This document shows positions 3,409-5,171 of a DNA stretch of 5,171 nt, piece after piece (the stretch's first letter is position 1; every line of letters starts with the position of its first letter). The position numbers and the translations under genes are program-made. The notes beneath the pieces are model-generated. The model saw nothing but the letters and a program-made list of their open reading frames with translations. It searched no databases and was not told the DNA's origin. Origin of the DNA: Spartobacteria bacterium (lineage in GTDB: Bacteria > Verrucomicrobiota > Verrucomicrobiia > Chthoniobacterales > UBA10450); the NCBI GenBank assembly GCA_003445855.1, contig DMCG01000224.1, forward strand, positions 1 to 5,171, in the 5' to 3' direction.

Positions 3409-4395
3409 TTAATCGAGCGGACTCTTCACGCCGATACCGGGCTTGTTCAGCACGTGCGTGTAAATCATCGTCGTGCTCACATCTTTATGGCCGAGTAGTT
3501 CCTGCACCGTTCTGATATCGTAGCCATTTTCGAGTAGATGCGTGGCGAAGGAATGTCGAAAGGTGTGGCAGCTGGCCGCTTTATTTATGCGGGACACACG
3601 CACGGCGGATTTGACGGCATTCTGCAGATTTTTCTCGCTCACATGATGCCGTTGTTCGATGCCAGTGCGCGGATCAGCCGAGCGTTTCAGCGCGGGAAAA
3701 ACGTATTGCCAGGCCCACTCGCGAGAAGCATTCGGCATTTTCCTCTCCAGCGCGCCGGGCAGATGGACCGTGCCGAAACCTTGTGCAAGATCGACATCGT
3801 GCCGCCGTTTTACCTCATCCAGATGATCGCGCAACGCTGGCACGACGGAAACCGGCAGCATCGTTCTTCGGTCTTTACCACCCTTGGAATCCCGCACCAC
3901 GATGTGCAGGTATTGAAAATCCACATCCTTAACGCGCAGACGCAGACATTCGAGCAGGCGCAGGCCACTGCCATAAAGCAGCTCTGCCATTAACCGGTAT
4001 TGACCGGCTAATTGCGCTAGCACAGCGCGCACTTCCGCCGGGCTGAGCACAACCGGTAGTTTGGGCGGACGTTTCACTCGCACCACGCCACCGATGAAAG
4101 CCAGTTCACGTCCGAGCACTTCTTTGTACAAAAAGAGCAGCGCGCTCAGGGCTTGGTTTTGCGTAGAAGCGGCCACTTTCCCTTCCACGGCGAGGCCGCT
4201 CAGGAAAGCCGAGATGTCTCTCTCGTCGAGTTCGCGCGGATGGCGTTTGCCGTGAAAGAGAATGAAGCGCTTCATCCAGGCCAGATAAGCTTCCTCCGTG
4301 CGAAGGCTGTAATGCCTGAGGCGCAAAAGCCGACGCACCTGCTCGAGCAATTTGGGCTTGCCAGCGGGGGAAGCGCCCGGTAAAGGATCAACCAT
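3409..4395 (-). CDS. intI: Integron integrase (IntI-type tyrosine recombinase)
   Basis: This is a 328-residue tyrosine recombinase that recombines attI with single-stranded folded attC sites to insert or excise gene cassettes. The N-terminal SAM-like DNA-binding domain spans about 13-100 (HYSLRTEEAYLAWMKRFILFHG is its diagnostic start, 28-49). The catalytic domain contains Arg146 (GSGLR), a lysine near 171-174 (SKGGKD), His277 and Arg280 (HTFRHSF), His303 (LLGHKDVS) and the nucleophile Tyr312 (MIYTHVL), all intact. By my recall these match the numbering of the class 1 integrase. The IntI-specific extra patch lies at 215-235 (ALERKMPNASREWAWQYVFP), followed by DPRTGIEQRHH, and separates it from XerC/XerD and phage integrases. 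ATG 4393-4395 is the only start, since an in-frame stop lies four codons upstream. The gene reads away from the cassette, the classic layout. No CTGT-N8-ACAG LexA box is visible in the 80 bp upstream. Confidence 0.97.
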   Translation of the reverse strand: MVDPLPGASPAGKPKLLEQVRRLLRLRHYSLRTEEAYLAWMKRFILFHGKRHPRELDERDISAFLSGLAVEGKVAASTQNQALSALLFLYKEVLGRELAFIGGVVRVKRPPKLPVVLSPAEVRAVLAQLAGQYRLMAELLYGSGLRLLECLRLRVKDVDFQYLHIVVRDSKGGKDRRTMLPVSVVPALRDHLDEVKRRHDVDLAQGFGTVHLPGALERKMPNASREWAWQYVFPALKRSADPRTGIEQRHHVSEKNLQNAVKSAVRVSRINKAASCHTFRHSFATHLLENGYDIRTVQELLGHKDVSTTMIYTHVLNKPGIGVKSPLD

Positions 4396-4473
4396 GTCTT
4401 CGTTTTACCCGGAACCTTCCGTGGGGGAAAGCCGAAATAGGCGAAACAAACTTTCGTCGAATTGTAGTTAGAC
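4396..4473 (+). other. attI: Integron attachment site attI (region and crossover core)
   Basis: This stretch between the intI start and the first cassette holds the crossover core GTTAGAC (4467-4473), which fits the GTTRRRY consensus; the exchange point is expected between G4467 and T4468. Upstream are two similar direct copies, GCCGAAA (4431-4437) and GGCGAAA (4440-4446), and a 9-bp palindrome TTCGTCGAA (4453-4461). These are candidate accessory integrase-binding or regulatory sites, by position only. The divergent promoters for intI and for the cassette should lie here or inside the 5' part of intI, but I cannot call convincing -35 and -10 boxes. The left limit of attI is not determined. 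Confidence 0.75.
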
Positions 4474-4475
4474 CT

Positions 4476-5006
4476 ATGCGACCGCTTCCCGGGCTGACGT
4501 TTATCGTTCTTACGAGTGTGGCCTTCACGGGATGTGAGAAGCGCACGGCGCGATACATCCACATCGGGCCGGATTCATTACCGACGAAAAGCTATGAGCA
4601 CAGACCGGAGGAGCCCTTCAACCGCTCAGATTACGTGATCAGGTTGAAGCAGATGACGAGTTTTTATGACGTTCCGGGCGAGGCCGGCTACTTCATGAAC
4701 GGCGAAGATTACGGCTTCGACGGCCTCTCATTCATCCTGACCGAGACCCAAGCGGGCGGCGGCCCGCCTTTGCATACGCACGAGAGTGAGGAATCGCACA
4801 TCGTTCTGCACGGCCAGGTTGAGTACGTGATCGGCGATCGGCGATTTACAGTGGAAGGACCATATGTGGTGCGGGTTCCAGCCGGGGTGCCGCACACTTT
4901 CCGGAATGCCGGGATGGAACCGTTCAATCTCATAGCCGTCTTTCCTGACAAGCATCTTACCTACAAAGAGCTCGGGAAGAATCCGCTTGTGAAACCAGCC
5001 AAGTAA
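4476..5006 (+). CDS. Cassette-borne predicted lipoprotein with a cupin domain
   Basis: This is a 176-residue protein. Residues 1-19 look like a short lipoprotein signal with a hydrophobic core (LTFIVLTSVAF) and a lipobox-like FTGC, so Cys20 would be lipidated; Phe at -3 is less usual. A single cupin_2-type beta-barrel spans about 78-160. Its first motif has His100, His102, Glu106 and Gly113 (PPLHTHESEESHIVLHG); its second has Pro135, Gly137, His140 and Asn144 (RVPAGVPHTFRN). The His/His/Glu/His metal site is therefore complete. Small cupins of this kind bind a metal and may act as dioxygenases, isomerases or ligand sensors; the substrate is not predictable here. No Shine-Dalgarno precedes ATG 4476, only 8 bp from the recombination point, so translation may be leaderless or weak. 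The frame stays open into attI, but the signal peptide supports this start. It lacks sequence features of known resistance genes. Confidence 0.92.
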   Translation: MRPLPGLTFIVLTSVAFTGCEKRTARYIHIGPDSLPTKSYEHRPEEPFNRSDYVIRLKQMTSFYDVPGEAGYFMNGEDYGFDGLSFILTETQAGGGPPLHTHESEESHIVLHGQVEYVIGDRRFTVEGPYVVRVPAGVPHTFRNAGMEPFNLIAVFPDKHLTYKELGKNPLVKPAK

Positions 5007-5057
5007 CTCATTTGCACGGGCCGATGACAAAACATGAACTCGGAACGCCTCCCACAA

Positions 5058-5171
5058 GTCTAACCAAGCGCTCCAGCCAACGGCTCCGCTGCGTTATGTT
5101 TTCGATGTCGATCTTCGCTAGTGTGATTAAACCCGCTGCCACTTGCGCTCCCCTGAGCCGTGGCTGAGCTT
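5058..5171 (+). repeat. attC: attC recombination site (59-be), truncated before R'
   Basis: The R'' box GTCTAAC (5058-5064) fits RYYYAAC. Two distant arms pair as follows: AAGC (5066-5069) with GCTT (5168-5171), TC (5072-5073) with GA (5166-5167), AGCCA (5075-5079) with TGGCT (5161-5165), and CGGCTC (5081-5086) with GAGCCG (5155-5160). This gives 17 base pairs with unpaired bases only on the left arm (5070-5071, 5074, 5080). Such one-sided extrahelical bases are the hallmark IntI uses to choose the strand of folded attC. The central 68 bases (5087-5154) form a long variable part. The window ends just before the expected R' box, for which a GTTRRRY with GTT as its first bases is predicted within about 10 bp. 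Total length would be about 125 bp, near the size of large Vibrio repeats. Confidence 0.85.

What the first reader, a model, noticed from the sequence alone, without database searches (positions are those of the whole stretch)
3409..5171. Chromosomal integron platform: intI, attI, first cassette and attC
All four parts of a working integron are visible in the canonical divergent order. The integrase has every catalytic residue and the IntI-specific patch, attI has a GTTRRRY core, a cassette gene starts 8 bp after the exchange point, and a foldable attC follows. The neighbours are housekeeping-type genes rather than transposon or plasmid genes, so this looks like a sedentary chromosomal integron, possibly in a little-studied phylum. 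The array may continue past the window.
Basis: partly seen in the sequence, partly recalled or inferred. Interest (0 to 1): 0.85.

Follow-up and report, generated by a model that had tools for sequence, protein, structure and literature searches.

The report
Verrucomicrobial integron with leader-coding recombination sites
This is the front end of an integron, a platform predicted to capture genes, in the chromosome of a Verrucomicrobiota bacterium, and its two recombination sites carry short reading frames, of a kind kept in most of its family, that are likely translated to help ribosomes reach each captured gene.

Summary
The window (a whole 5,171-bp contig of a 73%-complete MAG) holds intI, attI, one cassette and a first attC. 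IntI passes the integron-integrase model (460.7 bits, cut-off 265) and groups with other Verrucomicrobiota IntIs. The contig ends 6-7 nt before the attC R' box would begin; relatives show that box and long arrays. Family-type attCs occur in 80 of 83 family genomes, and the locus is syntenic with a congener.

Beyond the finding: the attC loop is coding-like. In 114 of 148 attCs (shuffled mean 19.3; one genome, G019, set apart) and 49 of 68 from further genomes (mean 8.3; 46 of 64 without model-training sites), an ATG opens a short ORF in one frame, ending in the L' or R' box. The window's reads MSIFASVIKPAATCAPLSRG*. attI carries a matching ORF in 16 of 20 usable sites. Other families of the order show only a trace. 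I infer leader ORFs that let ribosomes melt the attC hairpin and restart on the next cassette, a mechanism proposed for class 1 integrons. Translation is untested, peptide conservation is weak, and G019 mostly lacks the ORF, some of its loops looking like promoters.

The parts
3409..4395 (-). intI, integron integrase, 328 aa
   Evidence: TIGR02249 460.7 bits vs cut-off 265; aligned to 2a3v; tree
4396..4473 (+). attI region, with GTTAGAC core at 4467-4473 (exchange between 4467 and 4468)
   Evidence: alignment with 22 other family attIs, mostly ending CTCGTTAGRY; the window's own end GTAGTTAGAC is shared with L032 up to GTAGTT
4394..4471 (+). attI ORF, 25 codons, MSSFYPEPSVGESRNRRNKLSSNCS*; ATG overlaps the intI start on the other strand, stop TAG is inside the attI core
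   Evidence: translation itself untested
4476..5006 (+). first cassette gene: 176-aa cupin with a lipoprotein-like signal sequence
   Evidence: PF07883 1e-13; 333 homologues; lipobox read by eye
5058..5171 (+). first attC (R'' 5058-5064, L'' about 5074-5087, L' about 5153-5168), truncated by the contig end before R'
   Evidence: covariance model R1, 95.7 bits; covarying stem in relatives
5096..5167 (+). attC ORF, MFSMSIFASVIKPAATCAPLSRG* (second in-frame ATG at 5105); stop TGA lies in the L' box
   Evidence: same ORF in the attC on G000:C78 (MSILVSNTQLAATCASPSRG*); family counts. The window's own attC is not in those counts.
2921..3340 (+). bacterial PH-domain protein, chromosomal flank on the 3' side of intI
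   Evidence: PF03703; syntenic in relatives
91..2659 (.). chromosomal flank: MBL-fold hydrolase (91-708 +), AmgK-like kinase (705-1694 -), MurU-like nucleotidyltransferase (1700-2659 -)

Best explanation
The window is the intI-attI-first-cassette end of a sedentary chromosomal integron of a Chthoniobacterales (Verrucomicrobiota) bacterium, cut by the contig end inside the first attC, and its attI and attC each carry a short ORF of a kind conserved in most of the family that is predicted to be translated so that ribosomes pass the attC hairpin and restart on the next cassette gene. Shown: the parts, the order, the arrays in relatives, the same chromosomal flank beside intI in a congener, and the conserved frame of the attC and attI ORFs. 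Inferred: IntI cuts G|TT in attI and in the folded bottom strand of attC to insert or excise cassettes. Inferred: most of these ORFs end at TGA in L' or at the stop inside GTTRRRY, so their last codons lie on the 3' arm of the hairpin; a translating ribosome would hold that arm open and often stop within a few bases of the next start codon. The frame is the same at attI and attC, so an exchange would keep the relay intact.
For: Integron. Arrays: 218 attC matches in 40 family loci, two of them from the own MAG; 176 cassette intervals, median 548 bp, longest ORF sense in 158 of 176. Family-wide attC: 80 of 83 genomes. Synteny: G045 intI-ArsR-GT-ORF634, with ORF634 next to bPH2 on another contig; G047's contig ends in the last 21 nt of intI beside GT-ORF634-bPH2. 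attC ORF: 132 of 184 vs null 29.9, sd 5.0; without G019, frame-2 ATG ORF 114 of 148 vs 19.3, and in genomes not used to form the idea 49 of 68 vs 8.3; without the model's training sites 107 of 140 vs 18.3 and 46 of 64 vs 8.0. ATG frame counts 168:36:23, stops in that frame 8 against 29 and 40; after clustering loops at 65%, 29:4:3 over 31 clusters. Antisense control 28 of 252 vs sense 188 of 252; 47 of 50 genomes hold at least one frame-2 ATG ORF. attI: of 19 ATG-to-core distances 17 are multiples of 3, 16 of those 17 open vs 5.5 expected (a 20th, L043, left out). Cassette ATGs peak 5, 9 and 10 nt after the R' G.
Against: No transcript, ribosome-profiling or recombination data. Peptide conservation is weak: in 65 disjoint pairs synonymous changes 73 vs 60.9 expected. 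43 of 184 attCs lack an ATG/GTG frame-2 ORF, 27 of them G019's, where some loops look promoter-like. SD-like motifs are as rare before chromosomal genes (13 of 132) as before cassette genes (14 of 153), so cassettes show no special need of coupling. Only 71 of 145 cassette ATGs lie within 20 nt of the R' G. attI sites share ancestry, and 7 of 23 attIs with a core lack the in-frame open overlapping ATG. Model R1 was seeded partly from sites resembling the window's. Setting G019 apart was decided after seeing the data. No sigma-70-like promoter was found in 4350-5171. The flank occurs without intI in G004 and G039, so the place is conserved in the genus, not the family.
Confidence: 0.62

Rival explanations
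1. An ordinary sedentary chromosomal integron; the ORFs in attC and attI are by-products of attC sequence homogeneity and are not translated or selected.
For: attC homogeneity is usual in chromosomal integrons (PMC8618304, passages); the favourite ATG distance, 71 nt from the attC end, is shared by 64 ATGs; peptide conservation is weak.
Against: Without distance 71 the frame bias stays 104 vs 36 and 23, with many in-frame distances used; it survives clustering at 65%, holds in further genomes, is absent antisense and is only a trace outside the family (12 of 72 vs 5.8, sd 2.1).
Confidence: 0.25
2. The conserved loop is a promoter for the next cassette rather than a coding leader.
For: In G019 the loops score 7.97 of 12 sigma-70 matches against 6.75, sd 0.11, in shuffles; 13 of 36 reach 9 of 12, many of the form TTGTTT/A-N17-TAGAAT (read by eye).
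Against: The other 148 attCs score 6.86 vs 6.72, sd 0.05, and only 3 reach 9 of 12; a promoter does not explain a fixed codon frame. The E. coli consensus may not fit this phylum.
Confidence: 0.08
3. The peptides themselves are the selected product (small secreted or regulatory peptides).
For: Slight excess of synonymous change only in the true frame: 73 vs 60.9; the other frames 41 vs 41.9 and 44 vs 43.4.
Against: Sequences differ widely between subtypes (MKQFSMFATLAPASGG, MTSTLNSAAKLAPASGG, MSIFASVIKPAATCAPLSRG) while start and openness are kept.
Confidence: 0.05

Closest known systems
Sedentary chromosomal integrons (Vibrio type)
   Same: Divergent intI and array, attI next to intI, long homogeneous attCs of about 124 nt, mostly one sense gene per cassette
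   Different: Verrucomicrobiota host; attC loop with a conserved ORF in one frame; attI with an ORF from the intI start to the core. Comparison with Vibrio VCRs is recalled, not run.
attI1 ORF-11 and ORF-17 of class 1 integrons (PMC8876359, passages; PMC4670013, passages)
   Same: Short ORF in attI; ORF-11 stop (usually TAG) at positions 3-5 of GTTRRRY, next gene just downstream; termination-reinitiation proposed
   Different: Here the ORF starts at the intI start codon on the other strand and is 25-35 codons long in 15 of the 16 open cases (14 in L040); ORF-11 has its own SD, which was not looked for here before the attI ORF
Short ORF within attC proposed to relieve the hairpin block (review PMC8876359 citing Jacquier 2009; the 2009 paper itself not read)
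   Same: Same predicted mechanism
   Different: There stated as a possible occurrence; here a frame-conserved trait of chromosomal attCs in most of a family
Promoters in gene-less cassettes of Vibrionaceae superintegrons (PMC11014356, search listing only)
   Same: Expression signals carried inside an array
   Different: Here mostly coding-like loops; promoter-like loops mainly in G019

Membership tests
Integron | IntI-type tyrosine recombinase with catalytic R, K, HxxR, H and Y and the IntI-specific insert | tested here: met
   460.7 bits, cut-off 265; alignment to 2a3v, motifs read by eye
Integron | attI beside intI with GTTRRRY core | tested here: met
   4467-4473; 22 further family attIs aligned
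Integron | attC with R'', L'', L' and R' and a foldable stem | tested here: met
   R'' to L' in the window; R' cut off by the contig end, present in relatives; stem covaries. Single-site folding z-scores are modest.
Integron | Array of cassettes in one orientation | tested here: inconclusive
   One cassette in the window; other attCs of the MAG lie on C7, C77 and C78; arrays shown in relatives only
Integron | Cassette promoter Pc in intI or attI | tested here: inconclusive
   0 sigma-70-like sites in 4350-5171; other promoter types and the rest of intI not covered
Integron | IntI recombines attI and attC | not testable with these tools
   needs a recombination assay
Sedentary chromosomal integron | Chromosomal, at a stable place, no transposon or plasmid genes at its edge | tested here: met
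   same flank order beside intI in G045, and by 21 nt in G047; flank families. In G004 and G039 the flank has no intI, so stability is shown within the genus only.
Sedentary chromosomal integron | attCs alike within the lineage | tested here: met
   80 of 83 family genomes with one model
Translational leader ORF of the ORF-11 kind | ORF ending at the core stop, followed closely by the cassette start | tested here: met
   window 4394-4471 then ATG 4476; family counts
Translational leader ORF of the ORF-11 kind | ORF is translated and raises expression of the next gene | not testable with these tools
   needs reporter assays

The most novel reading that the evidence does not exclude
In this verrucomicrobial family the recombination joints of the integron are also coding joints: attI and attC hold translated leader ORFs whose reading frame runs through the crossover and ends at the stop built into GTTRRRY, so cassettes can be shuffled at will while a ribosome relay through the whole array stays in register. 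The attC loop would thus be selected as an expression module, not as a filler.
Probability: 0.5. Interest if true: 0.8.

Novelty: new variant of a known kind. Interest (0 to 1): 0.62.

Why it matters
How distal cassettes of large arrays are expressed, and how ribosomes cope with attC hairpins in mRNA, is an open question in integron biology. A family whose attCs keep a start codon and an open frame gives natural-sequence evidence for a mechanism so far discussed for class 1 integrons, with some 160 natural variants in hand to test (163 of 216 attCs). It also shows attCs to be near-universal (80 of 83 genomes), and IntI common (33 of 83 over the cut-off), in a family of Verrucomicrobiota that includes Candidatus Udaeobacter.

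Tried and rejected
Rfam gave no match on the window or on L012-L014, so I built my own attC model. tRNA scan: none. My first idea that the conserved loop is a promoter was tested and kept only for G019. A thought, that intI was swapped by recombination because its 3' tail is 91% alike, was dropped: that stretch is conserved in many IntIs. The cupin has no homologue in the other loci held when tested, so attC similarity is not shared cassette descent. A claim that cassettes specially lack SD motifs was dropped after the chromosomal control. Free-energy z-scores of single attCs are modest (-2.27 to +0.99), so I rely on covariation and the model. Other phyla's attCs were not tested for ORFs.

Rows dropped before counts. 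Three contig-cut matches of the 218 were left out of the 215 analysed (a fourth cut site stayed in); 31 of those 215 were then dropped for length outside 120-132 nt. In one search, 87 further matches fell to 81 after removal of duplicates and of sites seen before, and to 68 by length; four of these 68, and 13 of the 184, were among the 19 training sites of the model (with counts that leave them out). In one search, 41 of the 71 non-verrucomicrobial loci are in the tree, and L033 (a 104-aa piece) is not. In one search, 12 of 35 rows gave no usable attI core (some rows are second copies of one site); of the 23 left, 20 had an ATG overlapping the intI start, and I left L043 out of the 19 because its IntI match begins at residue 60 and the start was misplaced. 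The tree is a quick one with one Xer row.

Full report
What is in the window. The window is the whole of contig C24 (5171 bp) of a MAG of 2.10 Mb in 260 contigs, 73% complete. Genes: MBL-fold hydrolase (91-708 +), AmgK-like kinase (705-1694 -), MurU-like nucleotidyltransferase (1700-2659 -), PH-domain protein (2921-3340 +), intI (3409-4395 -), a cupin with a lipoprotein-like signal (4476-5006 +), then an attC. IntI scores 460.7 bits on TIGR02249 (cut-off 265), far above its XerC and XerD scores, and its best solved relative is the integron integrase 2a3v, with the catalytic motifs and the insert aligned.

attI and attC. The attI core GTTAGAC is at 4467-4473 and the cassette ATG follows 8 bp after the exchange point. 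attC begins with R'' GTCTAAC at 5058. The contig stops inside attC after ...GCCGTGGCTGAGCTT; in complete relatives R' begins 6-7 nt later. Nineteen complete attCs of relatives (R'' to R') were aligned. A hand-drawn R''/R', L''/L' stem is paired in 92.2% of cells; its covariation score (0.186) is above all 500 shuffles, while its 5 pairs changed on both sides are matched by 115 of 500. The model built from them, without the window, hits the window at 95.7 bits, cut at the 3' end, and finds attCs on C78, C7 and C77 of the same MAG.

How widespread. 33 of 83 family genomes have an IntI over the TIGR02249 cut-off. 80 of 83 have attCs of this type at E 1e-6 (at most 42 candidates per genome were scored). 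Outside the family, 37 of 130 genomes of the order match, more weakly (117 of 213 in all less the 80, 16 candidates scored per genome). Five family IntIs are identical in the tree to those of public records, among them G079 to Candidatus Udaeobacter sp. AEW3 and G042 to a Chthoniobacterales MAG; the naming of the family rests on this. In that tree 29 family rows, the window's among them, and 9 named Verrucomicrobiota rows form one branch (SH-aLRT 93, not starred); the window pairs with G070 (99). Among 29 other family intI loci, 14 have an attC in the stretch held; in 12 the array lies divergent from intI, in two (L030, L042) on the same strand downstream of it (strands).

Sedentary. In the same genus the order intI-ArsR-GT-ORF634 stands on G045:C86, with ORF634 beside bPH2 on G045:C176. 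On G047:C86 GT-ORF634-bPH2-NTP-AmgK are followed by the last 21 nt of intI, where the contig ends. On G046:C86 ArsR-GT-ORF634-bPH2 end in a piece that looks like an attC end by eye, but the model finds no attC there. The window lacks ORF634-GT-ArsR. In G004 and G039, of other genera, the flank has no intI in the stretches fetched. So the place is conserved within the genus, not through the family.

The arrays. Over 40 family loci 218 attCs were found. 176 cassette intervals have a median of 548 bp; the longest ORF is sense in 158. For 145 cassette genes with an ATG, 71 start within 20 nt and 98 within 40 nt of the R' G, with peaks at 5, 9 and 10 nt; 5 means the ATG directly follows GTTAG, stop abutting start.

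The unexpected feature. The attC loops (VTS) read as short ORFs. Of 184 full-length attCs, 132 hold an ATG ORF of at least 11 codons that starts in the loop and stops inside attC; dinucleotide-shuffled loops give 29.9, sd 5.0, maximum 45 of 200 shuffles. ATGs fall 168:36:23 by frame; stops in the loop 8 in that frame against 29 and 40. The main stops are TGA in L' (20 nt from the end) and TAG in R' (5 nt from the end), which share one frame. The bias is not one fixed position: without the commonest distance it is 104 vs 36 and 23, and it survives clustering at 65% identity (29:4:3 in 31 clusters). With G019 set apart, a choice made after seeing the data, 114 of 148 have the frame-2 ATG ORF against 19.3, sd 3.9; genomes not used to form the idea gave 49 of 68 against 8.3, sd 2.7. 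Without the model's training sites the figures are 107 of 140 vs 18.3 and 46 of 64 vs 8.0. Antisense: 28 of 252, sense 188. Other families of the order, 72 attCs: 12 vs 5.8, sd 2.1, the top of the 200 shuffles, so a trace at most (ORFs of 9 codons or more). By genome, 47 of 50 have at least one. G019 is the exception: 2 of 36 attCs have the frame-2 ATG ORF; its loops score promoter-like (7.97 vs 6.75 matches of 12; 13 of 36 reach 9), and 16 of 36 have an ATG/GTG ORF in another frame, against 4.8 expected.

attI shows the same theme. Of 23 attIs with a clear core, 20 have an ATG overlapping the intI start codon on the other strand. One (L043) was left out because its start was misplaced. In 17 of the other 19 that ATG is in frame with the core stop position (distances 42 to 105 nt), and in 16 of those the frame is open, against 5.5 expected from shuffles; the two other frames of the same stretches are open in 6 and 3. 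In two of the 16 (L015, L032) the core is GTTGG, which gives no stop. In the window the ORF is 4394-4471, the stop is inside GTTAGAC, and the cassette ATG follows 4 nt later.

What selection acts on. In 65 disjoint pairs synonymous changes exceed expectation only in the true frame (73 vs 60.9; other frames 41 vs 41.9 and 44 vs 43.4). The start context is T-rich before and A-rich after the ATG, and G-poor just upstream. SD-like motifs are equally rare before chromosomal genes (13 of 132) and cassette genes (14 of 153). This fits selection on being translated more than on the peptide.

Mechanism and prior art. The review PMC8876359 (passages) reports that attC hairpins hinder ribosomes and that a short ORF within attC may relieve this by termination-reinitiation, like attI1 ORF-11, whose stop also lies at positions 3-5 of GTTRRRY. 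The principle is therefore in print. In the searches made (two searches listed 20 of 63 and 20 of 34 papers) I saw no report of a frame-conserved attC ORF across a lineage, nor of Udaeobacter integrons; one search gave one E. coli paper holding both words, not opened. The library holds open-licence papers only. PMC8352920, which models attCs of 11 taxa, does not name Verrucomicrobia in its main text. Phylum-level presence is stated in PMC8618304.

Verdict. The integron is real and, as such, a new member of a known kind. The coding-like recombination sites make it a new variant. Translation and its effect remain to be tested.

Noticed in passing
L019:1354-1433 and 13 other family attIs (alignment A4): attI holds three repeats X, X', X whose letters differ between sites but stay complementary: both the X/X' and the X'/X helix covary (4 of 5 and 5 of 6 pairs changed on both sides). 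The two hairpins exclude each other, like an attenuator, or they are co-evolving IntI sites.
   Followed up: partly
L190, L191, L192 (G019): attC loops of one genome tend to promoter-like TTGTTT/A-N17-TAGAAT (13 of 36 reach 9 of 12 matches) in place of the frame-2 ORF.
   Followed up: partly
L030, L042: In a starred IntI subclade of 7, the two members with nearby attCs have intI on the same strand as the array, upstream of it: an inverted integron layout.
   Followed up: no
window 3297-3429; L296 1-132 and 2729-2774: A tail of about 45 nt of the PH-domain gene recurs after the GT gene in G047; the window lacks the 2.6 kb between the copies, as after a deletion.
   Followed up: partly
window 3409-4395 vs L215: IntI is only 64% alike between the window and same-genus G045 at the same locus, while three neighbouring proteins are 88-93% alike; the closest IntI is in another genus (G070, 76%). 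The NTP gene too is only 52% alike in G045 and G047.
   Followed up: partly
L033 (G021:C10:4543-5484): This family intI has a stop inside its frame (the open piece is 104 aa), and several family genomes hold intI fragments, so some platforms may be decaying.
   Followed up: no
G000:C56:3551-3607 and G000:C91:3301-3336: Short pieces resembling the attC loop (77% and 92% alike) without a full attC.
   Followed up: no
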